DNA from: Caballeronia sp. TF1N1
GTDB taxonomy: Bacteria; Pseudomonadota; Gammaproteobacteria; Burkholderiales; Burkholderiaceae
Length of the DNA: 64,000 bases
Assembly (NCBI RefSeq): GCF_022878925.1
Contig: NZ_CP084629.1
Location: 558,001-622,000 of the forward strand
Reading direction: 5' to 3'
Within the stretch, counting starts at the first letter, position 1, and every line of letters starts with the position of its first letter. Under the pieces are notes generated by a model. The model was not told the DNA's origin. It made no database searches and saw only the letters and a program-made list of their open reading frames with translations. Positions 10,718 through 43,450 of this stretch are shown here, piece by piece. A program made the position numbers and the translations under genes.

Positions 10718-10724
10718 TTATTCG

Positions 10725-24017: not shown

Positions 24018-24826
24018 TGCAGACATCGAACGGTACTTCGCTCAGGTTCTGCGCAAACCTCAAGTGGCTCTTTACGGAGCTGCCCTTTCTCGAACGCTTC
24101 GAGGCGGCCGCAAAGCACGGCTTTAGCGCGGTCGAGTACGCGTCGCCTTATGAGTTCGAGCCTGCGATTCTCAAGGCGACGCTCGATGCCACGGGGCTTC
24201 GGCAAGTGCTGATCAACACGCCCGCCGCGCCGCCTGGAAGTATCGGCGGTAACGGGTTCGGATGCATTCCTGGCGAACGGGCGCGGTATCGCGATGGCGT
24301 GTTGCGTGCGCTGCATTACGCGTCGGCGCTGAAGTGCGGGCTCATTCACGTGATGGCTGGACTTGCGCCAGGCGGCGTGTCCGACGAACAGGCGCGCGAT
24401 ACGTTGCGCGAAAATCTCGCGTGGGCTGCGGAGGCGGCGCGCGATAGCGGCGTCACGCTGCTGCTCGAATGCCTCAATCAGATCGACGTACCGGGCTATG
24501 CTCTGCGCAGCCTCGAAGAGGCGCACGCGTTGATGAAGGAGATCGCGCAACCTAAGTTGCGCCTGCTTTTCGATGCCTATCATTGCCGCATGAGCGGCCT
24601 CGATGTCGTCGAGCAATTCGCGTTGTACGCGCCCGACGTCGCGCACATTCAATTCGCCGACGCACCCGGCCGCCACGAACCCGGCACCGGCGACATGCCG
24701 TGGAACGAGTTGATCGCGAGTATCCGGGCGCAGGGTTACGAAGGCTGGATTGGCTGCGAGTATCGGCCTCGTGAATCGACGGTTGCGGGGCTCGGGTGGC
24801 TCGATGCCTTCAAAGAAGCACCCTAG
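24017..24826 (+). CDS. Hydroxypyruvate isomerase (Hyi)-like TIM-barrel protein
   Basis: A 269-residue sugar-isomerase-type TIM barrel (AP_endonuc_2 family). It starts LRFCANLKWLFTELPFLERF and contains the metal-binding acidic and histidine positions in LLLECLNQIDVPGY, LRLLFDAYHCRMSG, HIQFADAPGRHEPGTG and WIGCEYRP. This is the Hyi/YgbM-like pattern; such enzymes interconvert hydroxypyruvate and tartronate semialdehyde or related 2-oxo sugars. It ends the operon; its TAG shares CTAG with the stop of the convergent GntR gene. Confidence 0.85.
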   Translation: MQTSNGTSLRFCANLKWLFTELPFLERFEAAAKHGFSAVEYASPYEFEPAILKATLDATGLRQVLINTPAAPPGSIGGNGFGCIPGERARYRDGVLRALHYASALKCGLIHVMAGLAPGGVSDEQARDTLRENLAWAAEAARDSGVTLLLECLNQIDVPGYALRSLEEAHALMKEIAQPKLRLLFDAYHCRMSGLDVVEQFALYAPDVAHIQFADAPGRHEPGTGDMPWNELIASIRAQGYEGWIGCEYRPRESTVAGLGWLDAFKEAP

Positions 24827-25542
24827 CGCTTGAATATCGCTTCCAGGTCCACTTCCTCCTCGACCACATCCAGATTGAGCGCGCTTTGAATGTGATCGAG
24901 GTGATGCAGCATCAACTCCGCCGCCTTGTCGCCGTCGCCCTTGGCGATGGCATCGACGATAGCGGTGTGTTCATCGGCGCGGCAACTCGACGTTATCGGC
25001 GCGTTATAAAGCAGGATGACGAGGCACGTCAGTGTCGATAGTTCGCGCACGCTGCGCGTGAACGACGAGTTACCCGCGAGCGTCGCCACGAGATTGTGAA
25101 ATTCGCCCGAGAGCCGGATGACCGCGCGCTTGTCCGAACGCTCGCGCGCGTCCATTTCGAGCCGCAAGTGCTCGCGCATTTGCGCGAGCTTGTCAGGCGT
25201 GATGCTGCGCGTGAGCCGCGCAATGACCGCGGGTTCGATCACCCTGCGCGCTTCGAAAACATCGCGCGCCTGGTCCACCGAAGGCTTCGCGACGAACCAG
25301 CCTTTCTTCGGATACACCTCGACGATCTGTTCATAGGCAAGCCGGCTCAACGCGTCGCGCACGCGTGCCCGGTTCACGCCGAAGATACTGGCCAGACGTT
25401 CTTCGGCGAGCTTCGTGCCGGGCACGAGCCGATGCTCCAGTAGTGCGACGTAGATCTGTTCGTAAATCTCTTCGCTGGTGTTGTCGCCGTCGCCTGTCTT
25501 GCGGGGCTTGAGTTTCTGCGTTTCGCCGACGGTTTTTAGCAT
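24823..25542 (-). CDS. GntR-family regulator, FCD domain (paralogue of the regulator at 43833)
   Basis: A 239-residue FadR-type regulator. The winged helix covers about residues 22-90 (EIYEQIYVALLEHRLVPGTK, ASIFGVNRARVRDALSRLAY, PKKGWFVAKPS). The FCD domain has RLSGEFHNLVATLAGN and the segment TLTCLVILLYNAP. The same unusual stretch recurs in the regulator at 43833-44564, so the two are paralogues. It is last in the minus-strand block and convergent with the Hyi gene, sharing a CTAG stop overlap. Likely represses part of the catabolic island. Confidence 0.9.
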   Translation of the reverse strand: MLKTVGETQKLKPRKTGDGDNTSEEIYEQIYVALLEHRLVPGTKLAEERLASIFGVNRARVRDALSRLAYEQIVEVYPKKGWFVAKPSVDQARDVFEARRVIEPAVIARLTRSITPDKLAQMREHLRLEMDARERSDKRAVIRLSGEFHNLVATLAGNSSFTRSVRELSTLTCLVILLYNAPITSSCRADEHTAIVDAIAKGDGDKAAELMLHHLDHIQSALNLDVVEEEVDLEAIFKR

Positions 25543-25613
25543 GTGCCGCGTCTGATGGATTGGCGCATGTCGAAAGAGACATGCCGATGGTCAGGCTCGC
25601 TTCGCCCGACCGC
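25543..25613 (-). promoter_or_regulatory. Inverted repeat upstream of the GntR gene
   Basis: GCATGTC-GAAAGA-GACATGC at 25565-25584 is a perfect 7-6-7 inverted repeat about 23 bp upstream of the GntR start and about 30 bp downstream of the deacetylase stop. It may be an operator for the GntR protein or a weak transcript-end hairpin. Confidence 0.4.
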
Positions 25614-26516: not shown

Positions 26517-26563
26517 GCTGCACTCCTGTGTCGTGTCGTGGTGTTTCGAAAGGATGAGCGGGC

Positions 26564-27322
26564 TCAGAGCATCACGTCGCCGCCATTGGGCGAGAGCGTC
26601 TGACCGATGAAATACGCGCCGCCCGTTTCCGATGCGAGCAAGAGCGCGGTGGGGGCGATCTCGCCGGTTTCACCGAAGCGGCCGGCGGGAAGCTGCGCGA
26701 ACTTCATCGCGCGCCATTCATTTGTGAAGCTCGCGAGCATCGCGGTTTCGACGGGGCCCGGCGCAATGGCGTTGACGGTCACGCCGTGCGGCGCGCCTTC
26801 GTAGGACAGCGCGCGCGTGAAGCCGACCACGCCCGCCTTCGACGCGCAATAGTGGCTCATGTCGTACGTGCCCTTGTACGCGAGTTGCGAGGCGATGTTG
26901 ATGACGCGGCCGTACTTGCGCGCGATCATGTCCGCGAAAAACTGCTTGGTGACGAGGAACGTGCCGCGCAGATTCACGGCCATCATGCGGTCCCATTCGT
27001 CGATGGACAGATCGACGAACGGCGTCTCGCCGCTGATTCCCGCCGCATTCACGAGAATATCGACGGGGCCGAGATGCTCGCGGCTCCATGCGTTCAGGCG
27101 CGCGACGGCATTGGCATCGGTGACGTCGCATTCGGTCACGGCGGCTTCTGCACCGCTGGCGGCGAGTTCGTCGGCGAGTGCTTGCGCGCCGGCTGCATCG
27201 CCGATATGCGAAATGCCGACCTTCGCGCCCTGAGCCGCGAACAGTTGCACGATGGCGCGGCCGATACCCGTGTTGCCGCCGGTCACGAACGCCGTGCGGC
27301 CCTTCAGCGAGAACGATTCCAT
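26564..27322 (-). CDS. Short-chain dehydrogenase/reductase
   Basis: A 252-residue classical SDR. The nucleotide motif is TGGNTGIGRAIV (about 12-23), NAAG is near residue 90, and the catalytic Ser-Tyr-Lys set is in INIASQLAYKGTYDMSHYCASKAG. The ATG at 27322 is preceded by AAGGAGGAG 6 bp upstream, which decides this start. The C-terminus PNGGDVML is usual for the family. It probably oxidises or reduces a hydroxyl/keto product of the island, using NAD(P). Follows the NAD-dependent epimerase gene by 23 bp. Confidence 0.9.
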   Translation of the reverse strand: MESFSLKGRTAFVTGGNTGIGRAIVQLFAAQGAKVGISHIGDAAGAQALADELAASGAEAAVTECDVTDANAVARLNAWSREHLGPVDILVNAAGISGETPFVDLSIDEWDRMMAVNLRGTFLVTKQFFADMIARKYGRVINIASQLAYKGTYDMSHYCASKAGVVGFTRALSYEGAPHGVTVNAIAPGPVETAMLASFTNEWRAMKFAQLPAGRFGETGEIAPTALLLASETGGAYFIGQTLSPNGGDVML

Positions 27323-27345
27323 GCTGATGCTCCTCCTTGATTCGA

Positions 27346-28272
27346 TCATGCGGTTTCGGCCGATGTTTCGGCGAGCCATTGCGCGTAAGCGCGAATGCCC
27401 GCTTCGAGGTCGAGGCGCGGCCTGTAACCCAAGTCCGTGGCCGCCGCCGAAATGTCGAAGCGTTCCTGATTCTCGTCGAGCGGATCGGGACCGGGCGCGA
27501 GTTCGATATCCGCGCCGGGCATCACGCGGCGTACGATATCCGCCACTTCGCCGAGCGTCGCGCGCACGCCACCGGTGATGTTGTAGGTGCGGCGCGGCAG
27601 CGACGGCGCATCGAGCGCGGCGACGAGCGCGGCGGCGGCATCGTCGACATGAATGTACTGGCGATGAAAGTCGAGGCCGAACGGCACGCGCGTCGGCTGC
27701 TTCGCCATGGCGTCGGTAAGCATGCGGCGGATCATGCAGTCGGTCGTGCGATGCGGGCCGTACACCCACGACAGCCGCAGACTCACGCCATCCACGCCGT
27801 ATTGCCGCGCGTAGGCGCTGACGAGTTGCTCGCCGCAGACCTTGCTCGCGCCGTAAAGACTGGCGGGCGCGAGCACGACATCTTCGGGGACGGGACCAGG
27901 CGGCGTATCGCCATAAGCGCTCGTCGACGAGCAATACACGAAACGGCGCGCGCCATGTATGCGCGCTATTTCCAGCATGTTGGCCGTGCCGCCGATGTTC
28001 ACGTCGAACATGGCGGCGGGGTTATCGCGCGCGACCATCGGCCCGGAAAACGCACCGCAATGAATGACGCCCGACACGCCGCCGCGCGCCAGCGCATGCA
28101 GTCCGTGCACGTGGCGCAGATCGCATTCGGCGACGGTGACATCGTCTATGCGCAGCCCGCCGCTGCGATCCATCGCGACGACTTCATCGCCACGCGCGTT
28201 TAAAAGCCGGACCACCGCGCGGCCCACGAGCCCCGCCGCGCCCGTTACGATGATTCTCTGCGGCACGCTCAT
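27346..28272 (-). CDS. NAD-dependent epimerase/dehydratase family protein
   Basis: A 308-residue extended SDR. It begins with the Rossmann motif IIVTGAAGLVGRAVVRLL, has the active-site SSTSAYGDTPPGP and YGASKVCGEQ (Tyr-x-x-x-Lys), and ends in a small substrate domain. It could be a sugar epimerase, a uronate-type dehydrogenase or a dihydroflavonol-type reductase; the sequence does not choose. Its start overlaps the ATPase stop (ATGA, 28269-28272), so it belongs to the Dpp-type transporter operon. Confidence 0.87.
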   Translation of the reverse strand: MSVPQRIIVTGAAGLVGRAVVRLLNARGDEVVAMDRSGGLRIDDVTVAECDLRHVHGLHALARGGVSGVIHCGAFSGPMVARDNPAAMFDVNIGGTANMLEIARIHGARRFVYCSSTSAYGDTPPGPVPEDVVLAPASLYGASKVCGEQLVSAYARQYGVDGVSLRLSWVYGPHRTTDCMIRRMLTDAMAKQPTRVPFGLDFHRQYIHVDDAAAALVAALDAPSLPRRTYNITGGVRATLGEVADIVRRVMPGADIELAPGPDPLDENQERFDISAAATDLGYRPRLDLEAGIRAYAQWLAETSAETA

Positions 28273-29936
28273 TGTCTTTCTCCCGCGACATCGAGATGGT
28301 GAACCGTCTTTGCGACTTCCTCTATCGGCAACTCGGCCTTCAGGAGCTTGCGCGTGTACTCTTCGACCGGCCGCTCGAACACGGTTTCAGCCTCGCCGGT
28401 TTCGATGATCCGGCCGTTGCGCATGACCGCGACATAGTGCGCGAGTGAGCGCACGGAGTTCAGATCGTGCGTGATGAACAAGGCGGACAAGCCCATCTCT
28501 GCCTGCAGGTTACGCACGAGGTCGATGATCTGCGCACGCACGCGAATATCGAGCGCGGTCGTGCATTCATCGAAGACGACGAAGTCTGGATTGGCCGCGA
28601 GCGCCCGCGCAATGCCCACGCGTTTCTGTTCGCCCGCCGTCAACTCATGCGGATACGCAGTCGCGCGCCGTCGCGACAGATTCACGAGATCGAGCAGATG
28701 CAGCACGCGCGCCTCGCGGTCGGCGCGCGTGAGCTTCTCGCCGAGCGCGAACGGCTCCGCAATCAGATCGCGGACCTGCCAGCGCGGATTGAGCGATACA
28801 TAAGGCTCCTGGAAGACCATCTGCATGCGCCGCCGCACGGCCCGGAACGCACGTTCCGACAGATCGAGCGTGTTCACGCCATCGAAGCGAATCACGCCGG
28901 AGTCCGCATCGAGCAGACGCAACAAGCATTGGCCGGTCGTCGTCTTGCCCGAGCCGCTTTCGCCGACGAGCGCGAGGGTCTCGCCCTTCGCGATGGCAAA
29001 GGACACATCGTCGATCGCGCGCACGACGGCATGATTGCGGTCCGAGACGAAGGTCTTCACCAGGTGTTCGACTTCGAGCAAAGGACGGCGCGCGGCGGCC
29101 TTGTCGGCGTCCGTGCGCAGATCGGGTTCGCGCGGCGCGGGGCGCGCTTTCGCGGCATCGAGCAACTCGCGGCTGTACGGTTCTTGCGGGCTGCGCAGAA
29201 AAGGTCCGACCGAAGCGAGCTCGATCAGCCGGCCGTCTTTCATGATCGCCACACGGTCGCAATAGTTGGCGACGACGCCGAGATCGTGCGTGACCATCAC
29301 GACGCCGAGGCCCAGATCACGGCCCTTCTGCGCGAGCAGATCGAGCACCTGCAACTGGATTGTCGCGTCGAGACCGAGCGTGGCGTCGTCGGCGAGCAAG
29401 ACCTTGGGCTGGGCGATCAACGCCATCGCAATGACCACGCGCTGCGCCATGCCGCCCGATAGTTCGTGCGGATACGCATGCGCGCGCGCTTCCGGATTCA
29501 CGATCCCTACTTGCTTAAAGAGTTCGATCGCCTCGCGCCACGCCGCCTGACGTCCAATGCGTTTATGCACGCGCAACACGCGCACGATCTGCGCGCCGAC
29601 CGTCTCCACTGGATCGAGCAGCATCTTTGCATTGGTGCCGATCAGCGCGACCTCGCCGCCGCGAAAGCGCCGCTTCTCGCGCGCGGGCATGTCGAGCACG
29701 GATTGCCCCGCGAGCATCACCCGCCCGCCGTCGATGTGTCCGCCCTCCGGCAACAGGTCGATGATCGAGCGCGCCAGCACCGACTTGCCCGCGCCGGTTT
29801 CGCCGACGATGCCGAGAATCTCGCCCTGGCGCAGCGTGAAGCTCACTTCATCGAGAACGCGGCGGGCGGGAGTATCGCCGAACGAGACGGTGAGCCGTTC
29901 GACTTCCAGCAGCACGGGTCGCGAAGACGCGTTCAT
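28269..29936 (-). CDS. Dipeptide/oligopeptide-type ABC transporter ATP-binding protein, two fused ATPase domains (DppD-DppF fusion)
   Basis: A 555-residue protein with two complete nucleotide-binding domains. The first has GETGAGKS, LSGGMAQR and LLADDATLGLD; the second has [17 protein letters not shown] (variant of the LSGG signature) and FVVFDECTTALD. Each half ends with the oligopeptide-binding extension (EPYSRELLDA; EEYTRKLLKA). The fusion is common for peptide/glutathione-like importers. The first Walker B has two aspartates (LADDATLGLD) in place of the usual D-E, so the catalytic glutamate is absent and one of the two sites may be degenerate. Overlaps the permease stop by ATGA. Confidence 0.92.
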   Translation of the reverse strand: MNASSRPVLLEVERLTVSFGDTPARRVLDEVSFTLRQGEILGIVGETGAGKSVLARSIIDLLPEGGHIDGGRVMLAGQSVLDMPAREKRRFRGGEVALIGTNAKMLLDPVETVGAQIVRVLRVHKRIGRQAAWREAIELFKQVGIVNPEARAHAYPHELSGGMAQRVVIAMALIAQPKVLLADDATLGLDATIQLQVLDLLAQKGRDLGLGVVMVTHDLGVVANYCDRVAIMKDGRLIELASVGPFLRSPQEPYSRELLDAAKARPAPREPDLRTDADKAAARRPLLEVEHLVKTFVSDRNHAVVRAIDDVSFAIAKGETLALVGESGSGKTTTGQCLLRLLDADSGVIRFDGVNTLDLSERAFRAVRRRMQMVFQEPYVSLNPRWQVRDLIAEPFALGEKLTRADREARVLHLLDLVNLSRRRATAYPHELTAGEQKRVGIARALAANPDFVVFDECTTALDIRVRAQIIDLVRNLQAEMGLSALFITHDLNSVRSLAHYVAVMRNGRIIETGEAETVFERPVEEYTRKLLKAELPIEEVAKTVHHLDVAGERQ

Positions 29937-30784
29937 TGCTTACCTCGCGAGACGGGTTCCGCAATACGTTTGACGGCATCGCCGAGAATGGCGAAGGTCA
30001 GCACGGACACGATGATGGCAAGGCCCGGAAAGAGCGCCGCCCACCACACGCCGAGAATCATTTGCTGCGCGCCGTTGGCGACCATCAAGCCCCATTCGGG
30101 CGTCGGCATGCGCACGCCCGCGCCGACGAACGAAAGACCCGCGGTTAGAAGAATCGCCATGCCGATGCTGATCGAAACCTGCACGATGGCTGGCGTGATC
30201 GCGTTCGGCAGAATGTGGCGGAACATGATGCCCGCGTCCGTCGCGCCGCTGCAACGCGCCGCGCTGATGAACGGGCGGTCGCGCAACGAGAGCACTTCGG
30301 CGCGGATCAGGCGCGCGAACATCGGAATGAAAAGCACGGCGAGCACGATCGCCACGTTCCAGATTTCCTGGCCCATGACCGACACCAGCGCCATGCCGAT
30401 AACGAACACCGGAAACGACTGGATGAAGTCGAACACGCGCATCACGAGTGTGCTCAACATATTCCGGTAGTAGCCGATGAAAAGACCAATCGGCACGCCG
30501 ATCACGAAGGCAATCGCCACCGCCGTCACGCTGATCAGCAGGTTGATGCGCGTTGCGTAGATCACGCGCGAGAGAATGTCCATGCCCGATACGTCGGTGC
30601 CGAACCAGTAGTGCCACGAAGGCGCCTTCAGAATATTGGACGGGTCCGCTTCTATTGGCGAATGCGGCGCGATGAGCGGCGCAAACACGATCAGCACGAT
30701 CTGCAACACGAGCAGCGCAAGCCCGAAGATCAGCGCTTTGTCGAGACGCTGGCGAAAAGCGGAGAGCGCGTTCATCGGTGTCAT
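29933..30784 (-). CDS. Dpp/Opp-type ABC transporter permease (DppC-like)
   Basis: A 283-residue permease of the oligopeptide family with FGTDVSGMDILSRVIYATRI near residue 60, typical of DppC subunits, and the coupling loop ISAARCSGATDAGIMFRHILP. About six hydrophobic helices. The ATG at 30784 overlaps the stop of the DppB-like gene (ATGA), which fixes the start. Confidence 0.92.
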   Translation of the reverse strand: MTPMNALSAFRQRLDKALIFGLALLVLQIVLIVFAPLIAPHSPIEADPSNILKAPSWHYWFGTDVSGMDILSRVIYATRINLLISVTAVAIAFVIGVPIGLFIGYYRNMLSTLVMRVFDFIQSFPVFVIGMALVSVMGQEIWNVAIVLAVLFIPMFARLIRAEVLSLRDRPFISAARCSGATDAGIMFRHILPNAITPAIVQVSISIGMAILLTAGLSFVGAGVRMPTPEWGLMVANGAQQMILGVWWAALFPGLAIIVSVLTFAILGDAVKRIAEPVSRGKQ

Positions 30785-31821
30785 ATTTCGATCCTCGGAT
30801 CGGCGAGTCCGTAGAGCACGTCCACCGCCGTGTAGACGAGCAGAATGAAGGCCGCCGCGACGAGCACGAAACCCTGCAACGCGGGATAGTCGCTGTTCAT
30901 GACGGCCTGCACCGCGTATTGCCCGAGGCCGCCCCACGCGAAGATGGTCTCCACGAGCACGGCCGCGCCAAGCAGGAAGCCAAACAGAAAACCGATCATG
31001 GTAATGATGGGCGGCAGGCTGTTGCGCAGCGCGCTTCGCACGAGCATGGGCTCGGAAAGCCCGGACGCGCGCGCATGGCGGATGAACTCGCTGCGATAGA
31101 TGCCCTCGAAAGTCGAACGCGTGAGCTTCATCAGGCCGCCCATGTTGACGATGGTGAGCGTGAGCACCGGCAGCCACAGATGCGCGACCGCCGAGCGCCA
31201 CGCTTCCCAGTCGCCGGCAATCACGCTGTCGATGGTGTAGAAGCCGGTGACGGTGGGCGGCGGCGTGACGAATGAATCGACGCGTCCGAACGGCGCGGGC
31301 GCAATGCCCGCCATATGAAAGAGCGCGTAGATGAGGAGGAGCCCGACCCAGAAGTCCGGTATCGCGCCGGCGGCAAGTCCGTAGACGCGGCTCGCGCGAT
31401 CCACCAGTCCGCCCGGCCGCACCGCCGAGGTCACGGCGATTCCAACGCCGAGCACGACGGTGAGGATCATCGAATAGGTGATGAGTTCGAGCGTGGCGGG
31501 CACGCGTTGCAGCAGATCCACGGTGACGGGGTTCGAGGTGAACATCGAGGTGCCGAGGTCGCCGTGCATCAACGCGACGAGATAGCCGCCGAATTGCGAC
31601 CACACCGTGCCGTTGAGATGCAGCTTCTCGCGCAACGATGCAATGGCGTCTGGCGTCGCCATGTTGCCGAGCATGAGCAACGCGGGGTCGCCCGGCAGGA
31701 GGCGGATCAGCAGGAAGGTCGCGAACATCACGCCGAACATCTGCGGGATGAGAATGCCGATCCGCGCGACGACGATGCGAAGCGGTCGCGGCGCCGACCG
31801 CCACGCGGTGAAGAGGGACAT
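30781..31821 (-). CDS. Dpp/Opp-type ABC transporter permease (DppB-like)
   Basis: A 346-residue permease. The N-terminal helix and MFGVMFATFLLIRLLPGDPA are the DppB hallmark, and the coupling loop is IRHARASGLSEPMLVRSALRN. It forms the channel with the DppC-like subunit. An AGGAG sits before the ATG; a 73-bp gap with a strong hairpin separates it from the binding-protein gene. Confidence 0.92.
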   Translation of the reverse strand: MSLFTAWRSAPRPLRIVVARIGILIPQMFGVMFATFLLIRLLPGDPALLMLGNMATPDAIASLREKLHLNGTVWSQFGGYLVALMHGDLGTSMFTSNPVTVDLLQRVPATLELITYSMILTVVLGVGIAVTSAVRPGGLVDRASRVYGLAAGAIPDFWVGLLLIYALFHMAGIAPAPFGRVDSFVTPPPTVTGFYTIDSVIAGDWEAWRSAVAHLWLPVLTLTIVNMGGLMKLTRSTFEGIYRSEFIRHARASGLSEPMLVRSALRNSLPPIITMIGFLFGFLLGAAVLVETIFAWGGLGQYAVQAVMNSDYPALQGFVLVAAAFILLVYTAVDVLYGLADPRIEI

Positions 31822-31853
31822 CGCGAACTCCTTCAGGAGGATCGCGCCGCGAA

Positions 31854-31880: not shown

Positions 31881-31894
31881 ACGGCGTCAGGACC

Positions 31895-36006: not shown

Positions 36007-36037
36007 GACTTCCTTTCGTTCAATTCGTGGCCTGAAC

Positions 36038-37273
36038 TCAAGCGCCGCCCAAAAGCCGGGTCAGCGCGAGCGCGACGGTCTTCGTCGCAATACGCATGTC
36101 TTCGAGCTTGACGTGCTCGTCCGCGCGATGTCCGTTCGCTTCCAGCAGCGTGCGCGGCCCCGCGCCGTAGATCACGGTCGGCACGCCCGCTTCGCAATAA
36201 AGACGCGCGTCGGTATAGAGCGGCACGCCTTCGGCCGGTATGTCGATACCCATGATCGTGAGCGCCGCGTCCTGCAACGCGTGCGTGAGACGTTCCGCGC
36301 CCGGTAGCGTGCGCATGGGCGTCGCGGCCAGCACTTCGCGCGTGGTGATGGTGATGCCCGGCAGTTCGCGCGCCGCATCGCGCACGACGCTTTCCAGGCG
36401 TTCACGCGCGCGCGTCGGATCTTCCTCGGGCACGATGCGCCGGTCGAGCCGCAGCTTCACGCGGTCGGGCACGACATTGGTGTTGATGCCGCCTTCGATC
36501 AGCCCGACGACGAGCGTTGGATGCTCGATACCGGGCGTGGCCGAGCGAACCTCCTGCAACTCGCGCCGATGCGCATACAGCGCGTTCAGCACGACGGTCG
36601 CGGCTTCGAGCGCGTCGTGTCCGGTATCGGGCCGTGCCGCATGCGCCGATTTGCCGCTCACCGTGACTTCCAAATGCAGGCAGCCGTTGTGCGCAACCGT
36701 GATGGCGTAGCTGAAGCCCGCGCAGATGGCGTAATCCGGCTTGACGATGCCTTCGGCAAGCAACCATCCCGGCCCGAGCAGACCGCCGGTTTCCTCGTCG
36801 TAGGTGAGATGCAGCTCGATCGTGCCTTTGAGGTCAACGCCGCTTTCGACCAGCGCCTTCAACGCGAACGCATACGTGGCGAAATCCGACTTCGATACCG
36901 CCGCGCCGCGCCCGTATAACGCGCCCTCGCGAATCTGCGCGCCGTACGGGTCGCTCGACCATCCCTCGCCGGGCGGCACCACATCGCCATGCGCGTTGAG
37001 CGCGATGACAGGTCCAACGCCAAAGCGTTGCCGCACGACGAGATTCGTCACGCTCCGCATGCCCGCCGCCTCGACGAGCGTTTGCGGCACCGCGTGACGT
37101 TCGACTTCGAAGCCGAGCGCTTCGAGCAGCCCGGCAGTCATGTGCGCGTGCTGCGCGCAGTCGCCGGGCGGATTGTCGGAAGGTTTGCGCACGAGCGCCG
37201 CGAGAAATTCCACTTGCGCTTCGAAGCGCGTATCGATCGATTGTAAAAGCGCCTGCACGTTCGGTCTCCGCAT
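36038..37273 (-). CDS. M20 family metallo-amidohydrolase/peptidase (ArgE/DapE-like)
   Basis: A 411-residue zinc hydrolase. The metal motif HGDVVP has H95 and D97; the catalytic glutamates are in YDEETGG (E160, E161); the dimerisation domain contains VSGKSAHAARPDTGHDALE. Family members cleave N-acyl or N-carbamoyl amino acids and some dipeptides. Its ATG overlaps the preceding amidohydrolase stop by one base (TGATG). In this context it may release the free amino acid after ring opening; substrate unproven. Confidence 0.88.
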   Translation of the reverse strand: MRRPNVQALLQSIDTRFEAQVEFLAALVRKPSDNPPGDCAQHAHMTAGLLEALGFEVERHAVPQTLVEAAGMRSVTNLVVRQRFGVGPVIALNAHGDVVPPGEGWSSDPYGAQIREGALYGRGAAVSKSDFATYAFALKALVESGVDLKGTIELHLTYDEETGGLLGPGWLLAEGIVKPDYAICAGFSYAITVAHNGCLHLEVTVSGKSAHAARPDTGHDALEAATVVLNALYAHRRELQEVRSATPGIEHPTLVVGLIEGGINTNVVPDRVKLRLDRRIVPEEDPTRARERLESVVRDAARELPGITITTREVLAATPMRTLPGAERLTHALQDAALTIMGIDIPAEGVPLYTDARLYCEAGVPTVIYGAGPRTLLEANGHRADEHVKLEDMRIATKTVALALTRLLGGA

Positions 37274-38820
37274 CAGATGCGCGACGACGGCGCGTAAAAC
37301 GGCTCGCGCGGCGTCTCGCTTTCGCCGGTCAGATAGCCATCATAGAACGCCTTGACGTGCGGAAACACGGCGCGCCCCAATTCGCGGCGCGCGGTCTCTT
37401 CCGGGCTGCGCGGCTGCGAGAGCGTACGCGCGATGTCTTCGAGCACCGCATCGCGATCCATACGCGTGAAGCGGCCTTCGCGATACACCACTTCGCCACC
37501 GATCATCACGGCATCGACGGCATTGGTCTTGGCGCGCATCATCAACGCGTCGAGCATGGGAATGTCGTCGTCCTGATACGGCCACGTCGCGGTCTTGTAG
37601 TTCATCAGCACGAGATCGGCGAGACGCCCCTCTTCGAGCCTGCCGATACGCGCGCCGAACGGCGTCGTACGCGCGCCGTCCTCGCTTGCCATCTTGAGAA
37701 TCTGCGGGCATGTCGGCACGTCGTCGTCCATGCCCGGCGTGCGGTGAACGTTGAGCGCAAGACGCATCTCCTGAAGCATGTCGCGATCTTCGTTGATGCC
37801 CGCTTCGTCGAGCCCCATGCCGACCGTCACGCCATGCCGCGCAAACGCGTTGAGCGGCGCGACGCCGCTGCGCAGCCGGAAGTTCGAACTGCAGTTATGG
37901 CAGATGCAGGTGCCCGTATGCGCGATGGTCTCGATGTCCGCCTCGGTGAGCCAGACACCGTGGCCGAGCGTGAGCGAAGGACCGAGCAGGCCCAGATCGT
38001 TCAGATGGCCGACTGCCGTCTTGCCCGAGCGACGCCGCGCATATTCCTTTTGATACGCGGTTTCGACCAGATGCATGTGCATGGGCACGCCGTGCCGTGC
38101 CGACTTCTCCTTGAGCGCGAGCAGCGTGTCGTCGCTGCACCAGTGAAGGTTGGCCGGCGCGAGCTGAATGGCCGTTAGCGCATGGCCTTCGTTCTCGCGC
38201 GTGAGGGTATCGAAGAGTTGTAGGTAATCCGCGAGCGGAATGCGAAAACGCCGCAGATGCGCCCGCAGCTTATCGCCGGTTTCGGACGGCAGGCGGTTGC
38301 AAAAGTCGTCGTCGGCTTCGTAGACGAGCAGGTTCTGATCGCGCACCGCGAAGCTGTACGACGCGCGCATGCCGAGATCGCGATAAGCATCGAGCACGCG
38401 CGACGCGGCCCGATGGATGGCATCGAGCGGACCGGGACGCCAGCCGTGAATATGCTGCACGGTCGTGATGCCCGAGGCGATCATCTCGAAGGCGGAGTAG
38501 AGCGTGTCCAGATACAAGTCGATATCGCGTGCCCCCATGCGGCTCGCGAACCAGAGTTCGAGCGCATGGTCCGGCGAGCCGAGTTGCACCGGCGTGAGAC
38601 CGACATGATGGTGGCTGTTGACGAAGCCCGGCATCAGCACCGTGTCGGGCGAACCGAGGCGCAGCGCGTGCGGATACTTCTGCACCATCGCATCGCGCGG
38701 CCCGATCTCGACGATCACGCCATCGCGTTGATACAGCGCCGCGTCGCGCACCACCTCAGCCGCATGCCGGTCGGCCGCGCCTTTCACAATCCATCCTGCC
38801 ACGATCAATGATTCGGACAT
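37273..38820 (-). CDS. Amidohydrolase, ATZ/TRZ (8-oxoguanine deaminase / chlorohydrolase-like) type
   Basis: A 515-residue metal-dependent hydrolase. Metal ligands are H70 and H72 in FVNSHHHVGL; further positions are in VPMHMHLVET, LTLGHGVWLTEADIE and GMGLDEAG. CHNCSSNFRLRSGVAPLNAF is the ATZ/TRZ-type deaminase signature. Relatives deaminate or dechlorinate heteroaromatic rings such as guanine derivatives and s-triazines. It heads the M20 and racemase pair. Substrate probably a nitrogen heterocycle delivered by the flanking importers. Confidence 0.87.
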   Translation of the reverse strand: MSESLIVAGWIVKGAADRHAAEVVRDAALYQRDGVIVEIGPRDAMVQKYPHALRLGSPDTVLMPGFVNSHHHVGLTPVQLGSPDHALELWFASRMGARDIDLYLDTLYSAFEMIASGITTVQHIHGWRPGPLDAIHRAASRVLDAYRDLGMRASYSFAVRDQNLLVYEADDDFCNRLPSETGDKLRAHLRRFRIPLADYLQLFDTLTRENEGHALTAIQLAPANLHWCSDDTLLALKEKSARHGVPMHMHLVETAYQKEYARRRSGKTAVGHLNDLGLLGPSLTLGHGVWLTEADIETIAHTGTCICHNCSSNFRLRSGVAPLNAFARHGVTVGMGLDEAGINEDRDMLQEMRLALNVHRTPGMDDDVPTCPQILKMASEDGARTTPFGARIGRLEEGRLADLVLMNYKTATWPYQDDDIPMLDALMMRAKTNAVDAVMIGGEVVYREGRFTRMDRDAVLEDIARTLSQPRSPEETARRELGRAVFPHVKAFYDGYLTGESETPREPFYAPSSRI

Positions 38821-38855
38821 CGCGTTCTCTGCTCTCTCGAAGTGAATGGGGAAAA

Positions 38856-39731
38856 TCAGAACGACGGCGTGCCGTATAGATCGGTCCGCCGATGCGCGTA
38901 ATAATTGAGCCGACGCCGCGTGCGCGCGATATCCGCGTGCACGAGCGTCGCGCTCACGATGCCTGCGCCGAGCGCGCCGGACCGTCGCGCGAGCACCGCT
39001 CCATCGGCCGCGATCACACACGATTCGCCGAAGTTGTCGATACGCGCGTCATCGAGAAACTCGTCGCCGGCCTTGTTCGCGCACAGCACGGCGAGGCCGT
39101 TTTCGCGGGCATGCGTGCGCATTTCACCGACGAAGAAGTCCATGTCGTCGCCGCCGCTGCCCGCCACCGGCACGATCACGAGGTCCGCGCCTTGTGCCCG
39201 CAGCGCGCGCCAGCACTCGGGAAAACGCCGGTCGTAGCAAACCAGCACGCCCACGCGCCAGACACCGACGTTCACCACATGCAGACCCGAGCCGGGCGTG
39301 AAATGCGCGGGCTCGTCATAGCCGGGCGGGGGATCGTCGCCGACGGGCAAGTGCAGCTTGCGGGCAACCGGGCCTGCATTTGCACGCAACGTTAAGCCTT
39401 TGGCATCGAAGCCAAGCACAGCGTTGTGATAGCAACCGCTCGCGGGATCGTGCTCGTAGAACGGCACGATGAGCGCGGCATCGCATTCCTTTGCGAGCGC
39501 GGCCCACTTATCTGCGAAAGCGCCTTGCGCGGGATTCGCCCATTCGCGATAACGTCCCGCAGGCGAGCTCGCGAAATACGGCACCGTCGCGAGTTCCGGC
39601 AGCGCGATGAGACGCGCGCCTTCGTTTGCGGCGCGGCGCACCGCATCGAAAGCGATGGCCGCGTTGTGCGCGAGATCGGTGGTGCAGGGCGGCGATTGAA
39701 TCGCGGCTACGCGAAGCACGTCGTCGGTCAC
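38856..39731 (-). CDS. Carbon-nitrogen hydrolase (nitrilase superfamily; carbamoylase/omega-amidase-like)
   Basis: A 291-residue nitrilase-superfamily enzyme with the full Glu-Lys-Cys triad: E46 in LPELATVP, K125 in PVARKLHLP and C165 in GVLVCYDRRFPE. The CYDRRFPE form resembles N-carbamoyl amino acid amidohydrolase and beta-ureidopropionase-like members, which would follow a hydantoinase step and release ammonia and carbon dioxide. Its start overlaps the ABC ATPase stop (ATGA at 39728-39731), tying it to the transporter operon. Confidence 0.88.
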   Translation of the reverse strand: MTDDVLRVAAIQSPPCTTDLAHNAAIAFDAVRRAANEGARLIALPELATVPYFASSPAGRYREWANPAQGAFADKWAALAKECDAALIVPFYEHDPASGCYHNAVLGFDAKGLTLRANAGPVARKLHLPVGDDPPPGYDEPAHFTPGSGLHVVNVGVWRVGVLVCYDRRFPECWRALRAQGADLVIVPVAGSGGDDMDFFVGEMRTHARENGLAVLCANKAGDEFLDDARIDNFGESCVIAADGAVLARRSGALGAGIVSATLVHADIARTRRRLNYYAHRRTDLYGTPSF

Positions 39732-40558
39732 TTGATGCGCTCCTGCTCCGCGAACGCGCGGTCAACTTCGTCGCGTAACAGGTCGGTCAATCGATCGGCG
39801 AGCGCGTGAAAGGCTGGGCTGCGTGAATCGCGTGGACGCGGCATGTCGACGGGAATGATCGTCTTGATCCGCCCGGGCCGCGCCGTGAACACGACGATAC
39901 GATCCGCGAGCGCAATGGCTTCGTCGATATGATGGGTGACGAAGACCATCGATACGCCCGCTTGCCGCCACACCTGAATCAGAAAGTCCTGCATGCGGGC
40001 GCGCGTTTGCACATCGAGTGCGGCGAAGGGTTCATCGAGCAGCAGGATTTCCGGCTTGAGCGCAAGCGCGCGCGCCACGGCCGCGCGCTGCCGCATGCCG
40101 CCCGACAACTGATCCGGCCGCTTGTCGATGGCTTCGGAAAGTCCCACGCGTTCTAGAATCTCCTGCGCGACCTGGCGGCGGCGATCCTTCGGCACATGCT
40201 GCATCTTCAAGCCGAACGTGACGTTCTCGCCAACCGTGAGCCATGGATAAAGCGACGCCTCCTGAAACACGAGCCCGCGATCCGTGCCCGGCGCATGCAC
40301 TTCCGCGCCGCCGCACACAATGCGGCCTTCGGTCGCCTGTTCGAGTCCCGCCATGAGAAAGAGCAACGTGCTCTTGCCGCATCCGCTCGGACCCAGAAAG
40401 ACGACGAACTCGCCGCGCGCTACTTCGAGGTCGATGTCGCGTAAAGCCACGAACGGTTCGCCGTCCGTCTCCCACGTCTTGCCGACGCCCGTGCAGGTCA
40501 CGAGCGGCGGCTGGCCGCGGCGCTTCGGTGCAACGTCGGCAAAGGCTTGTTCGGTCAT
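39728..40558 (-). CDS. Nitrate/sulfonate/taurine-type ABC transporter ATP-binding protein (SsuB/TauB-like)
   Basis: A 276-residue ATPase of the SsuB/TauB/NrtD group. Walker A is GPSGCGKST, the signature is LSGGMRQRAAVARALA, Walker B is ILLLDEPFAALD, and FVTHHIDEAIALADRIVV is the typical H-loop region. The one-base gap to the permease and ATGA overlap with the nitrilase indicate one transcript. Confidence 0.93.
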   Translation of the reverse strand: MTEQAFADVAPKRRGQPPLVTCTGVGKTWETDGEPFVALRDIDLEVARGEFVVFLGPSGCGKSTLLFLMAGLEQATEGRIVCGGAEVHAPGTDRGLVFQEASLYPWLTVGENVTFGLKMQHVPKDRRRQVAQEILERVGLSEAIDKRPDQLSGGMRQRAAVARALALKPEILLLDEPFAALDVQTRARMQDFLIQVWRQAGVSMVFVTHHIDEAIALADRIVVFTARPGRIKTIIPVDMPRPRDSRSPAFHALADRLTDLLRDEVDRAFAEQERIK

Positions 40559-40559
40559 G

Positions 40560-41471
40560 TCATTTCCTCAGGCCGCTTTCCGGCACCCAAAACAGCACTT
40601 TGCGCTGCACGATGCGCAACAGGTAATCGAACGCGAAACCGAGCACGCCGATCAGCGTCATCGTGAAGAACGAAAGGCTCGCGTTGAAGGTATTGCGCGA
40701 GAGCATCACCACTTGTCCGAGCCCGCTGCCCACGCCGGTCGCCTCCGCAATCAGCACGACCATCCACGCGCCGAACAGGTTCATGCGCAGCACCATGAAA
40801 AGCGACGGCAAAATCGCGGGCAGGATCACATGGCGAAACGTCTGCGCGCGCGTGGCGCCCATTACGGCGGCCACGTTCAGCTGCGTGCGGCTCACGCTGT
40901 CTATTTGTCCGATGGTCGATACCGTCATCACGAAGAAGAGCGAGATGAAGACCATGAACACCGCTGGCCCATTGCCGATGCCGAACAGAAAGATCGCGAC
41001 AGGCAGCCACGCAATGGGCGAGATCGGCGCAAGCAGCGTAATGGTGGGCAGCGTGAGATTGCCGAAGAGACGAAAGTAACGGATGGCCACACCCATCGCC
41101 ACCGCGCAAACGAAGCCGAGCGTGAGACCGGCGAGCACGCGCAAGGTAGTCGCGACGATGGTCATCGCCAGCGCGCCGAAGGCCGTGCCGCTCGACTGCT
41201 CGCCGATCACATCGCTCGACAAAAAGTACTGCGCCTGCGAGCCGAAGTTGCGCAAAAAGATATGCGGCGGCGGCAGCAAGAGTGGATCGGCCCAGTGCAG
41301 CGCCCAGGCCGCTTCCCACACGGCGATGAAGCACGCAAGCGAAGCGATGCCCCACAGAAGCGGCACGATGCGCGCAAGGAGCGGCGCGCGCCGCGCCCGC
41401 GCGCGTCCATCGGCGGTCTTGTCGCCCGCGCGCTTCAGGCGGGAAGTGGCGTATCCCATGAGGCTGCTCAT
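40560..41471 (-). CDS. Nitrate/sulfonate/taurine-type ABC transporter permease (SsuC-like)
   Basis: A 303-residue permease with six predicted helices. Near residue 40 is LACFIAVWEAAWALHWADPL, then the PPPHIF loop, and the coupling loop VAAVMGATRAQTFRHVILP. The start at 41471 overlaps the binding-protein stop (ATGA), which fixes it. The family imports small organic anions, pyrimidine-like rings and sulfonates. Confidence 0.9.
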   Translation of the reverse strand: MSSLMGYATSRLKRAGDKTADGRARARRAPLLARIVPLLWGIASLACFIAVWEAAWALHWADPLLLPPPHIFLRNFGSQAQYFLSSDVIGEQSSGTAFGALAMTIVATTLRVLAGLTLGFVCAVAMGVAIRYFRLFGNLTLPTITLLAPISPIAWLPVAIFLFGIGNGPAVFMVFISLFFVMTVSTIGQIDSVSRTQLNVAAVMGATRAQTFRHVILPAILPSLFMVLRMNLFGAWMVVLIAEATGVGSGLGQVVMLSRNTFNASLSFFTMTLIGVLGFAFDYLLRIVQRKVLFWVPESGLRK

Positions 41472-42529
41472 GCGGTCTTTCGCTGCAATTGCGCGTACAG
41501 GTCGCCGTTTTCCTTGATGACTTCGGTGAGCGGCCCCCAGTCGAACATGTCCTTGCCTGGCAGCTTCTTGATGTAGCGAAGCTCCTTCAGATTTTCCGCG
41601 CGGCCGAGGATGAACGCTTCGTTGCCACGCTGATCGATCATCGGCGGCTGCTTGGTGGCGGCGTCGAGCGTGGCGTCGTAGCTCGTCTTGAAGTATTTGC
41701 CGACGGTGTCCTTCACGGCGGTCGCGCGATCCTGTTCTTCCTGATGCTGCGCGACCATCATGGCCTTGATGAGCGACTTCACGGCATCGCGATTCTCGTG
41801 CAGCAACTTCTCGCGCACCGCGAGCACGCAGTCGGAATAGTTCGCGCCGTACACATCGACGCCATTGGAAAGCATGACCGAACCCGCGCGCGACTTCAGC
41901 GCCTGCGTGGCATACGGCTCGATATGGCACATCGCATCGATATTGCCCGCGATGAACGCCTGCGCCAGTTCCGGCGACGTGCCGAAGTAGCGCACCTTGA
42001 CGTCCTTGAAGCTCATGCCCGCTTTCTTCAGATAGTCGTAGGGCAGCATTTCGAGCGTATCGGCCTGGAACGTGCCGATGGTCTTGCCGCGCAACTGCTC
42101 CGCCGACGTGATGCCCGGCTGCGCGACGATCACGCAGCCCTGCACGCCCGATCCCGCGACGACCTTGATGGGCGCGCCCGCATCGTAGAGCGTCATGAAG
42201 TTGGTGTACGGCACGACGCTCACATCCACCACGCCCGCGCCGAAGAGCGCCGCGATGTCGGCGTTGGTCGGCGTGGTCACGAAATCGAGCGTCACGCCTT
42301 GCGCCAGATTGCGCTCCTTCACGAGAAAGAACGGGCAATTACAGAGGCCCGTGCCGTGCGTCGCCTTGAGCGTGAGACCGCCGGCCGCGCTGGCGTTGGT
42401 GAGCCATGCGCCGCCGAGCATCGCGCCGCCCGCCATGCAGGCACTGCGCGCAAGAAAGTCGCGCCGCTCGTGGCTGATTGCGCTAAGACGCAGCGATGCC
42501 GCGTTTTTATCGATGAATTTCCTGAACAT
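41468..42529 (-). CDS. SsuA/NMT1-like ABC transporter substrate-binding protein with Tat-type signal
   Basis: A 353-residue exported binding protein. ERRDFLARSA at about residues 21-30 is a twin-arginine motif followed by a short hydrophobic core and cleavage near SAAGG. The mature domain shows the NMT1/SsuA layout: ATHGTGLCNCPFFLVKERN, GIEVDV-like DVSVVPYTNFMTLYDAGAPI, and AGNIDAMCHIEPYAT. It is the binding component for the permease and ATPase genes downstream. Confidence 0.88.
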   Translation of the reverse strand: MFRKFIDKNAASLRLSAISHERRDFLARSACMAGGAMLGGAWLTNASAAGGLTLKATHGTGLCNCPFFLVKERNLAQGVTLDFVTTPTNADIAALFGAGVVDVSVVPYTNFMTLYDAGAPIKVVAGSGVQGCVIVAQPGITSAEQLRGKTIGTFQADTLEMLPYDYLKKAGMSFKDVKVRYFGTSPELAQAFIAGNIDAMCHIEPYATQALKSRAGSVMLSNGVDVYGANYSDCVLAVREKLLHENRDAVKSLIKAMMVAQHQEEQDRATAVKDTVGKYFKTSYDATLDAATKQPPMIDQRGNEAFILGRAENLKELRYIKKLPGKDMFDWGPLTEVIKENGDLYAQLQRKTA

Positions 42530-42562
42530 CGTGATATCCCCGTCAAATTGAACAAAGGCGTT

Positions 42563-43450
42563 TCATTGGAAAATCGGTCCGGACTTGAGCAAGCCGTCGA
42601 GCAGATCGAGGGCGAAGATGTCGCTTAGGCGCGGCGTGATACGCATGCGTCCAAGCGCTTCGAGTGCCGATGCCCGCGCGAGCACGCTGGCGCGTAACGG
42701 CCGAATGTCGACGTCGGATGGCTGACGCGCCATGCCCGCGAGCAACTCGTCATGCGAAAACTCGGGCCATCGATGCGCACTCGCGCGCAACGCGGCGTGC
42801 GGATCGCGCTCGATGAGCGCTTGCGCTTCGAGCATGCCGGCGAGCACTTCGCGCACGATGTCCGGCTGTGCCACGAGAAAACTTTCACGCGCGACGAGCA
42901 GTGTGTCGGGATAGTCGCCGCCCCATGCTTCTATGCCGTCGCAGAGCACATCGAAGCCTTGCGCCACGAAGCGCGAGATATACGGTTCCACCAGCGTCAA
43001 CGCGGCAATGCGGCCGGCGAGCAGATCGCCGGCGGCGGCGGTCAGCGAGCCGAAGTGCACACATTCGACCTCGCTCATGCCGACGCCGTAAATGCGCAAG
43101 GCGTCGTAGAGCAGGGCCTCCATGGGGTCGTCGGCGAAGGTGCCCACGCGCTGGCCGCGCAGTGCCTCGACGGTCAAACCGCCTTGCCCGACCAGCGCCA
43201 TGCCGAGCTTGCCGCTGCCGCCGACGATGCGCAGCGGATCGGGCAACGCGTGATCGACTAACGCTTGCGTAAAGCCCGTGGTGCCCAGTTGCGCCGCACC
43301 GGTACGCAACAGCGCGGCCGTCGATTTGAATTCGGCCAGCTCTGGTGCTTCGGCATGAAGTCCGCGCGCTTCGAGTAAGCCCGTGTCGATGGCGACGAAG
43401 AGCGGCAGATTGGAAAGCGCACCTCCGTGCGCCAGCAACAACTTTCGCAT
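42563..43450 (-). CDS. Second SsuA/NMT1-like binding protein, no signal peptide
   Basis: A 295-residue protein with the same fold: LPLFVAIDTGLLEARGL, GAAQLGTTGFTQALVDHAL and LLAGRIAALTLVEPYISRFV. It starts MRKLLLAHGGALSN and has no signal peptide, so it is probably cytosolic. It precedes the exported binding protein by 33 bp in the same direction. A cytosolic sensor, an enzyme on the THI5-like fold or a decayed exported protein with a lost N-terminus are all possible. Upstream in-frame sequence to 43537 is not signal-like. Confidence 0.75.
   Translation of the reverse strand: MRKLLLAHGGALSNLPLFVAIDTGLLEARGLHAEAPELAEFKSTAALLRTGAAQLGTTGFTQALVDHALPDPLRIVGGSGKLGMALVGQGGLTVEALRGQRVGTFADDPMEALLYDALRIYGVGMSEVECVHFGSLTAAAGDLLAGRIAALTLVEPYISRFVAQGFDVLCDGIEAWGGDYPDTLLVARESFLVAQPDIVREVLAGMLEAQALIERDPHAALRASAHRWPEFSHDELLAGMARQPSDVDIRPLRASVLARASALEALGRMRITPRLSDIFALDLLDGLLKSGPIFQ

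What the first reader, a model, noticed from the sequence alone, without database searches (positions are those of the whole stretch)
24823..43450. Large minus-strand island that looks like a nitrogen-heterocycle/cyclic-ureide degradation system
One strand carries an ATZ/TRZ-type deaminase, a D-hydantoinase/dihydropyrimidinase, a two-cysteine hydantoin/allantoin racemase, a PuuE-like ring-opening deacetylase, an M20 amidohydrolase, a nitrilase-family carbamoylase candidate, two dehydrogenases and two separate ABC importers (SsuABC-type and Dpp-type). Together these could import a heterocycle, deaminate it, open the ring, resolve stereochemistry and remove the carbamoyl group. The combination does not match a standard allantoin, uracil or hydantoin operon that I know, and the substrate is unassigned.
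Basis: partly seen in the sequence, partly recalled or inferred. Interest (0 to 1): 0.75.

Follow-up and report, generated by a model that had tools for sequence, protein, structure and literature searches.

The report
Two adjacent ring-compound breakdown operons
A soil bacterium carries, side by side, two separately inherited gene sets that look able to import small nitrogen-containing ring molecules and take them apart, but which molecules they eat is still unknown.

Summary
Two catabolic operons lie head to tail, each conserved on its own, each with its own GntR/FCD regulator (51% identical). Upper operon (35272-43450, regulator 43833-44564): TauA/SsuA-type importer, nitrilase, ATZ-type amidohydrolase, unusual M20 hydrolase, allantoin/hydantoin-type racemase. 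Lower operon (24823-35061): dihydropyrimidinase/D-hydantoinase, Dpp-type importer, two dehydrogenases, PuuE-like enzyme. In 249 family genomes the upper marker occurs in 4, the lower in 6, both in 2; of 7 plasmid records searched whole, 3 hold one, 4 the other, none both. The functional theme is nevertheless supported: dihydropyrimidinases and PuuE enzymes sit beside this ATZ family far above chance. The ATZ enzyme reaches no curated cut-off shown and lacks the beta-1 glutamine of guanine/8-oxoguanine deaminases. The genome has a separate canonical 8-oxoguanine-deaminase/allantoin locus and two other dihydropyrimidinases. One of the three "binding proteins" (42563-43450) seems to lack a signal peptide. 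Most likely: import of a cyclic amidine or ureide, C-N hydrolysis, racemisation, ring opening, decarbamoylation. Substrate unassigned. Ordinary in kind, but widespread and not described in the paper listings I saw.

The parts
24823..25542 (-). GntR/FCD regulator of the lower operon (gntA)
   Evidence: PF00392, PF07729; 51% identical to the regulator at 43833-44564; present at the 3' end of the lower operon in L121-L124
25614..26516 (-). PuuE-like CE4-fold amidohydrolase, divergent from the genome's canonical allantoinase
   Evidence: TIGR03212 410.1 bits, cut-off 424.6; canonical copy elsewhere in the genome 533 bits; GWYCRYSPSVNT against GWYTGRDSPNT
26564..27322 (-). short-chain dehydrogenase/reductase
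   Evidence: PF00106/PF13561; YxxxK motif
27346..28272 (-). extended-SDR, NAD epimerase/dehydratase-family oxidoreductase; lower-operon marker
   Evidence: PF01370 174 bits; 6 of 249 family genomes
28269..29936 (-). DppD-DppF fused ATPase
   Evidence: two ABC_tran stretches
29933..30784 (-). DppC-type permease
   Evidence: BPD_transp_1 + OppC_N; start set by eye
30781..31821 (-). DppB-type permease
   Evidence: PF00528, PF19300
31895..33535 (-). family 5 solute-binding protein with a hydrophobic N-terminal stretch (likely signal peptide)
   Evidence: PF00496 290 bits; start at MSQTYD; hydropathy
33616..35061 (-). dihydropyrimidinase / D-hydantoinase family cyclic amidase
   Evidence: TIGR02033 521 > 393; NF009941 753 > 647; nearest solved chain 1nfg
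35062..35271 (-). lower-operon promoter region with three TTGTCAACAA-like copies (35084-35161)
   Evidence: TGTCAACA in 6 of 8 promoters of this operon; the window-only count is weak (8 of 100 shuffles reach 4 matches)
35272..36006 (-). allantoin/hydantoin-type racemase, two cysteines; last gene of the upper operon
   Evidence: PF01177; 78% identical to the racemase in the genome's canonical allantoin cluster; nearest solved chain 3qvj
36038..37273 (-). M20 hydrolase, ArgE/DapE type, with GRGAAVSKSDF in place of GRGxxDMKG
   Evidence: TIGR01910 228 > 217.6; motif in the window and in 3 of 3 orthologues read
37273..38820 (-). ATZ/TRZ-type amidohydrolase; defining gene of the upper operon
   Evidence: PF01979; under every NCBIfam cut-off shown; model pLDDT 89.8; invariant residues over 37 sequences
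38856..39731 (-). nitrilase-superfamily amidase, carbamoylase candidate
   Evidence: PF00795; AguB model 138 bits, cut-off 410
39728..40558 (-). TauB/SsuB-type ABC ATPase
40560..41471 (-). ABC permease (start inferred from the length of the orthologues in L003 and L011)
   Evidence: PF00528 on 40560-41444
41468..42529 (-). exported NMT1/SsuA-type binding protein with twin-arginine-like signal
42563..43450 (-). NMT1-fold paralogue, apparently without signal peptide, probably cytosolic
   Evidence: PF09084; the domain begins 4-7 residues after a methionine codon in 15 of 16 rows, window included; no signal-peptide predictor was run and the hydropathy check did not separate it from the exported paralogue
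43833..44564 (+). GntR/FCD regulator of the upper operon (gntB), divergent
   Evidence: homologue beside the operon in L003-L005 and L011-L018

Best explanation
Two independent catabolic operons of the cyclic-ureide/N-heterocycle kind lie head to tail. Upper operon: a TauA/SsuA-type ABC importer (by homology) takes up a small ring compound. The ATZ-type metal amidohydrolase hydrolyses a C=N (amidine-like) bond, removing an exocyclic amine or opening the ring (inferred), to give a 5-substituted hydantoin- or ureide-like product. The racemase converts the wrong enantiomer (inferred from 78% identity to the racemase in the genome's allantoin cluster). The nitrilase and M20 enzyme remove carbamoyl or acyl groups (inferred). 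Lower operon: a Dpp-type importer brings in a second compound, the dihydropyrimidinase-family enzyme and the PuuE-like enzyme open its ring or rings, and two NAD(P) dehydrogenases oxidise or reduce a side chain (inferred). Each operon is controlled by its own GntR/FCD regulator (inferred from position). Products of one may feed the other, because the cyclic amidase and the racemase stand on opposite sides of the junction, but this is not required.
For: The upper marker occurs without the lower in 2 of its 4 family genomes; the lower occurs without the upper in 4 of its 6, there in the same nine-gene order. Of 7 plasmid records searched whole, 3 hold ATZ (E <= 1e-150), 4 hold the lower marker (E <= 1e-60), none both. 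Promoters of the two share no 8-base word present in at least 4 of 8 lower and 3 of 9 upper ones. Two paralogous regulators. Dihydropyrimidinase lies within about 10 kb of the ATZ gene in 15 of 80 loci and PuuE in 12 of 80; in the 49 genomes checked, expected 0.23 and 0.34 loci, observed 14 and 10. In 10 of those 49 the only dihydropyrimidinase counted is the one beside ATZ. In L020, L021 and L029 an allantoate-amidohydrolase/carbamoylase-type M20, racemases and amidases lie beside ATZ; the L021 M20 passes NF006775 and TIGR01879. Canonical 8-oxoguanine deaminase, allantoinase, racemase and allantoicase lie together elsewhere in the genome, so the window copies are not that pathway.
Against: No substrate or activity is known; every enzymatic step is by homology. 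In both family genomes that have both markers they are on one contig within about 25 kb, which would be odd for unrelated operons; Variovorax sp. dw_308 also has both, on different contigs, and the Klebsiella oxytoca plasmid that carries the ATZ cluster holds, some 80 kb away, another cluster with a 65% dihydropyrimidinase, two dehydrogenases, racemases and an importer. The 49 genomes were not a random draw: they include 14 of the 15 dihydropyrimidinase-positive and 10 of the 12 PuuE-positive loci, and related genomes are not independent, so the Poisson values overstate. The partners next to ATZ vary much between lineages. The M20 enzyme lacks the usual DMKG aspartate and may not be a standard hydrolase.
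Confidence: 0.6

Rival explanations
1. One pathway: both halves act on one imported heterocycle. The upper half deaminates and racemises, the lower half opens the ring and oxidises.
For: In both family genomes with both markers they are linked (window; C. glebae at 41.4 and 65.1 kb of one contig). Fisher test on 249 genomes (2 of 4 against 4 of 245): P 0.003 with the window's genome, 0.06 without it. L042 (Rokubacteria) has ATZ, a Dpp set, SDR, a ureidoglycolate-lyase homologue and a 66% PuuE together (the PuuE there reads in two pieces). Cyclic amidases recur beside ATZ.
Against: Most genomes and plasmids that have one marker lack the other. In C. glebae the lower half is truncated, retaining the C-terminal 236 residues of the ATPase, both dehydrogenases, PuuE and gntA. 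Different promoter signatures and regulators. The lower-operon marker dehydrogenase was found in 0 of 80 ATZ loci within the fetched flanks.
Confidence: 0.22
2. The ATZ enzyme is a ring-opening amidohydrolase, like SsnA of the anaerobic urate pathway, not an exocyclic deaminase; with a hydantoinase-type enzyme and an M20 enzyme it dismantles a reduced or oxidised purine.
For: E. coli lays an ATZ-type SsnA, a hydantoinase (HyuA) and an M20 (YgeY) in one region. A 2025 paper shows SsnA, coupled to the reductase YgfK, gives ureidomethyl-hydantoin, which HyuA then opens (PMC12507026, passages read). The ATZ profile aligns to SsnA at 31% (hhalign score 194) against 25% (125) for guanine deaminase.
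Against: The genome's 8-oxoguanine deaminase aligns better (score 245). The SsnA family cut-off is missed by far (165 against 444). No reductase, xanthine-dehydrogenase-like, carbamoyltransferase or ammonia-lyase family was among the Pfam hits of the region.
Confidence: 0.2
3. Allantoin-family side entry: the ATZ enzyme deaminates an imino-analogue of allantoin (iminoallantoin/guanidinohydantoin type, from oxidised guanine) to allantoin, which the racemase and allantoinase then take on.
For: The racemase is 78% identical to the one in the allantoin cluster. In L020 and L021 an amidase, an allantoin-type racemase (62-64%) and a PuuE follow ATZ; in L021 the PuuE has the canonical GRDSPNT motif, and in both genomes only one PuuE was counted, the one beside ATZ.
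Against: The chemistry is my inference; a search for guanidinohydantoin catabolism found 0 papers. The window's PuuE is not the canonical type. The nitrilase and M20 have no obvious part in it.
Confidence: 0.08

Closest known systems
Hydantoin utilisation (hydantoinase, hydantoin racemase, carbamoylase)
   Same: Dihydropyrimidinase/D-hydantoinase-family enzyme over curated cut-offs, HyuE/HpxA-type racemase, candidate carbamoylases
   Different: An ATZ amidohydrolase and two ABC importers are added; the hydantoinase and racemase belong to different operons; the standard HyuC-type carbamoylase is not identified in the window
Allantoin catabolism (PuuE allantoinase, HpxA racemase, allantoicase)
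   Same: PuuE-like enzyme and a racemase 78% identical to the genome's own allantoin-cluster copy
   Different: PuuE is under the family cut-off with a changed motif; no allantoicase was among the region's family hits and a Variovorax ureidoglycolate-lyase query found nothing in the window; the canonical set is elsewhere in the genome
E. coli reductive urate cluster (XdhD, YgfK, SsnA, HyuA, YgeW, YgeY, YgeX)
   Same: Combination of ATZ-type amidohydrolase, hydantoinase-family enzyme and M20 enzyme
   Different: No reductase, carbamoyltransferase or ammonia-lyase among the region's Pfam hits; ATZ is not SsnA by cut-off
8-oxoguanine / guanine deaminases (GuaD cluster of subtype III amidohydrolases)
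   Same: Fold, metal-ligand motifs, best profile score of the four enzymes compared (245 to the genome's own 8-oxoguanine deaminase)
   Different: The glutamine after beta-strand 1 is missing; family cut-off not reached
NrtC/CmpC cytosolic regulatory domains and exported NrtA/TauA/SsuA binding proteins
   Different: Here the signal-less copy is a separate protein and not fused to the ATPase; no structure of it was predicted

Membership tests
D-hydantoinase / dihydropyrimidinase | Score over curated cut-off | tested here: met
   TIGR02033 521.1 > 393.25; NF009941 753 > 647
Allantoinase PuuE | Score over TIGR03212 cut-off 424.6 | tested here: not met
   410.1; the genome's other copy 533
Allantoin catabolic operon | Allantoicase, allantoate amidohydrolase or ureidoglycolate lyase in the operon | tested here: not met
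   No such Pfam family among the region's hits; ureidoglycolate-lyase (from Variovorax) and carbamoylase-type M20 queries found nothing in the window; allantoicase lies in L110
Hydantoin/allantoin racemase (Asp/Glu racemase superfamily) | PF01177 with two active-site cysteines | tested here: met
   206.9 bits; C76 and C181 present in all 5 aligned rows, window included
8-oxoguanine deaminase | NF006055 cut-off 532 | tested here: not met
   174.3 bits
Guanine-deaminase class (GuaD cluster) | Glutamine following beta-strand 1 (PMC12828455, passages read) | tested here: not met
   NSHHHVGLT in the window enzyme against NTHHHMYQ in the genome's 8-oxoguanine deaminase; beta-1 at 66-68 of the model
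Cytosine-deaminase class (CodA cluster) | Glutamine following beta-strand 3 (PMC12828455) | tested here: inconclusive
   Invariant Q162 follows strand 152-159 of the model, but profile comparison with CodA aligns only residues 317-406, at 8.5% probability
SsnA | NF005540 cut-off 444 / TIGR03314 cut-off 455.5 | tested here: not met
   164.9 and 155.1 bits
Reductive urate cluster | Reductase, xanthine-dehydrogenase-like, carbamoyltransferase and ammonia-lyase partners | tested here: not met
   No such Pfam family in the region's proteins
N-carbamoylputrescine amidase (AguB) | TIGR03381 cut-off 410 | tested here: not met
   138 bits
HyuC-type carbamoylase | TIGR01879 match of the window M20 | tested here: inconclusive
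   Not among the best 25 of 53 families listed
Hydantoin utilisation system | Turnover of a hydantoin by the operon's enzymes | not testable with these tools
   Needs assays

The most novel reading that the evidence does not exclude
The upper operon is the Burkholderiaceae form of an undescribed pathway found in Proteobacteria, Rokubacteria and Cyanobacteria. An exclusive ATZ-type amidohydrolase, neither guanine- nor cytosine-class, turns an imported cyclic amidine into a hydantoin or ureide, and a signal-less binding-protein paralogue senses that substrate in the cytosol to govern the importer or regulator, like a free-standing NrtC/CmpC regulatory domain.
Probability: 0.2. Interest if true: 0.65.

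Novelty: new variant of a known kind. Interest (0 to 1): 0.4.

Why it matters
The ATZ family at the core of the upper operon is strongly conserved (70% mean column identity over 37 sequences, from Proteobacteria, Rokubacteria and Cyanobacteria by the titles), usually keeps an importer of its own, and repeatedly sits beside hydantoinases, allantoinase-like enzymes and racemases, yet the window's member reaches no curated cut-off shown. Finding its substrate would name a family of nutrient-scavenging clusters and sharpen bare 'amidohydrolase family protein' annotations. Splitting the window into two operons also tells an experimenter to screen two substrates and not one.

Tried and rejected
Rejected: (a) canonical allantoin operon: the genome has one elsewhere and the window's PuuE misses the cut-off. 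(b) Reductive pyrimidine pathway: a second dihydropyrimidinase (37% identical) lies in L111 beside a gene whose start resembles a dihydropyrimidine dehydrogenase (judged by eye and recall, no family search). (c) A single regulon: no shared promoter word at the thresholds used. The window-only motif count was weak (4 matches; 8 of 100 shuffles reach that). (d) Viral carriage: the racemase alone was tested, no relative found. (e) Known RNA elements and tRNAs: none in the window. (f) Assigning ATZ to the cytosine-deaminase class by Q162: position suggestive, profile comparison negative. (g) The D-glutamate-cyclase cluster on the left as a third part: of five query proteins, three gave a single weak match each (28-35% identity), one none, and one matched only the genome's own DNA. 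In an alignment a third ATZ row was read out of frame and was ignored. A hydropathy check did not separate the signal-less protein (1.47) from its exported paralogue (1.33).
Literature: searches listed no paper whose title or abstract start describes this cluster; some lists were cut (15 of 39, 10 of 12, 8 of 25). Read as passages only: PMC11698098, PMC13054789 (plus outline with abstract), PMC12828455, PMC12507026 (plus outline with abstract), PMC4016543. Nothing was read whole.

Full report
OBSERVATION. The minus strand from 43450 down to 24823 carries seventeen closely packed genes, preceded by a divergent GntR/FCD gene at 43833-44564. Expected catalytic motifs are present by inspection. 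The M20 enzyme is unusual: it has GRGAAVSKSDF, as do the three orthologues read (77-80% identity; two further orthologues in L003 and L012 were not read), whereas 12 of 12 more distant M20 relatives (26-31%) keep the aspartate of the DMK motif. GC content is even, so this is not a compositional island. No tRNA or Rfam element was found in the window.

WHERE IT SITS. The window's genome is an unnamed 7.07 Mb assembly. Two genomes of its genus carry the closest ATZ homologues, at the coordinates of the Caballeronia ptereochthonis and C. glebae loci (93% and 92%), so the genus is inferred to be Caballeronia. The same genome holds on another contig an 8-oxoguanine deaminase (780.7 > 532), a canonical PuuE (533 > 424.6), a racemase 78% identical to the window's, and an allantoicase (475.8 > 277.9). 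Two further dihydropyrimidinases over the cut-off lie on two more contigs. The window's copies are therefore additional.

TWO OPERONS. The upper unit (importer genes, nitrilase, ATZ, M20, racemase) is seen complete in a Burkholderia aenigmatica plasmid and, without M20 and racemase, in Paraburkholderia and Klebsiella oxytoca plasmids. The lower unit occurs on its own in the order dihydropyrimidinase, binding protein, DppB, DppC, DppDF, epimerase-like, SDR, PuuE-like, GntR in four family genomes (L121-L124), and in related arrangements in Variovorax, Klebsiella michiganensis, Skermanella and Aminobacter plasmids (no PuuE match in Aminobacter); the first three of these records also annotate a ureidoglycolate lyase. 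Searching those 7 plasmid records whole, ATZ was in the first 3 only and the lower marker in the last 4 only; their other replicons were not searched. In 249 genomes of the family, ATZ (E <= 1e-150) is in 4, the lower marker (E <= 1e-90) in 6, and both in 2, the window's own genome and C. glebae. In C. glebae they share a contig about 23 kb apart, but the lower unit lacks the dihydropyrimidinase, binding protein, permeases and the front of the ATPase. Fisher P is 0.003 with and 0.06 without the window's genome. Against a strict separation: Variovorax sp. dw_308 has both units, on different contigs, and the K. oxytoca plasmid carries, about 80 kb from ATZ, a further cluster with a 65% dihydropyrimidinase, two dehydrogenases, racemases and an importer. 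The two regulators are 51% identical. TGTCAACA occurs in 6 of 8 lower promoters, TGTAAACA in 7 of 9 upper ones, and no 8-base word is in at least 4 lower and 3 upper promoters.

THE FUNCTIONAL THEME. A genome-contig scan with an eight-sequence ATZ alignment found 436 relatives, of which the best 80 were kept. Among those 80 loci, many with truncated flanks (51 of 80 have about 10 kb on both sides), partners found were: exported binding protein 70, permease 71, nitrilase 35, HpxA/HyuE-like racemase 31, arylmalonate-decarboxylase-like racemase-fold protein 18, amidase-signature enzyme 25, dihydropyrimidinase 15, PuuE 12, carbamoylase/allantoate-amidohydrolase-type M20 10, ArgE-like M20 10. In the genomes of 49 of the 80 loci I counted 63 dihydropyrimidinase (E <= 1e-100) and 91 PuuE (E <= 1e-30) copies; 0.23 and 0.34 loci would be expected by chance, and 14 and 10 were seen. 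I chose those 49 partly knowing their neighbours, so the ratio is inflated; over all 80 loci the counts are 15 and 12. Relatedness between loci is not corrected for.

A SIGNAL-LESS BINDING PROTEIN. The protein at 42563-43450 starts a few residues before its NMT1 domain. In 15 of 16 rows, the window's included, a methionine codon lies 4-7 residues before the conserved HGxALSNL; the sixteenth reads into an upstream frame. Where the frame stays open further upstream, the extensions are not alike. No signal-peptide predictor was run, and a hydropathy check did not discriminate. The exported paralogue has a twin-arginine-like motif in 65 of 75 homologues. Its model resembles NrtA, TauA and SsuA and also the cytosolic regulatory domain of CmpBCD. 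A cytosolic sensor is a reasonable but untested reading.

MECHANISM. By homology: two importers, one ATZ amidohydrolase, one cyclic amidase over curated cut-offs, one PuuE-like enzyme, one racemase, two C-N hydrolases, two dehydrogenases, two regulators. Inferred: the order of reactions, the substrate class (cyclic amidine or ureide), and any exchange of intermediates between the operons. The changed PuuE motif (GWYCRYSPSVNT against GWYTGRDSPNT) suggests that the lower operon's substrate is not allantoin.

VERDICT. A real, well-conserved pair of catabolic operons with an unassigned substrate; new variant of a known kind; moderate interest.

Noticed in passing
window 18098-24826 (+): A third transport cluster on the other strand: D-glutamate-cyclase-like protein (PF14336), Asp/Glu racemase, SBP_bac_11, permease, an ATPase-like stretch, SBP_bac_3 and a xylose-isomerase-like TIM barrel, converging on the lower operon. 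Queries from it gave no matching cluster in the fetched loci.
   Followed up: partly
window 42563-43450 (-): NMT1-fold 'binding protein' apparently without signal peptide (15 of 16 rows examined); possible free-standing cytosolic sensor.
   Followed up: partly
window 36038-37273 (-): M20 hydrolase in which the DMKG motif is replaced by VSKSD, also in the three orthologues read.
   Followed up: partly
L128 6328-16514 (Klebsiella oxytoca plasmid pIron_OXY): A further cluster about 80 kb from the ATZ genes: GntR, importer, two dehydrogenases, two Asp/Glu racemase-family genes, a 65% dihydropyrimidinase and a fumarylacetoacetate-hydrolase-family gene.
   Followed up: no
L095 9506-12661: Paenarthrobacter sp. 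YJN-5 plasmid carries the epimerase-like and SDR genes (48% and 55%) next to a 33% dihydropyrimidinase relative and an MFS transporter: a minimal core of the lower operon.
   Followed up: no
L113 (C. glebae) 7105-11243: Lower operon truncated inside the ATPase gene; only the downstream genes remain.
   Followed up: partly
L057/L058 about 3.3-4.8 kb; L064, L068, L075-L077 just after ATZ: A second ATZ-type paralogue, about 26-30% identical, recurs beside the ATZ gene.
   Followed up: no
window 9128-10717 (+): IS66-family transposase left of the region; several homologous clusters lie on plasmids.
   Followed up: no
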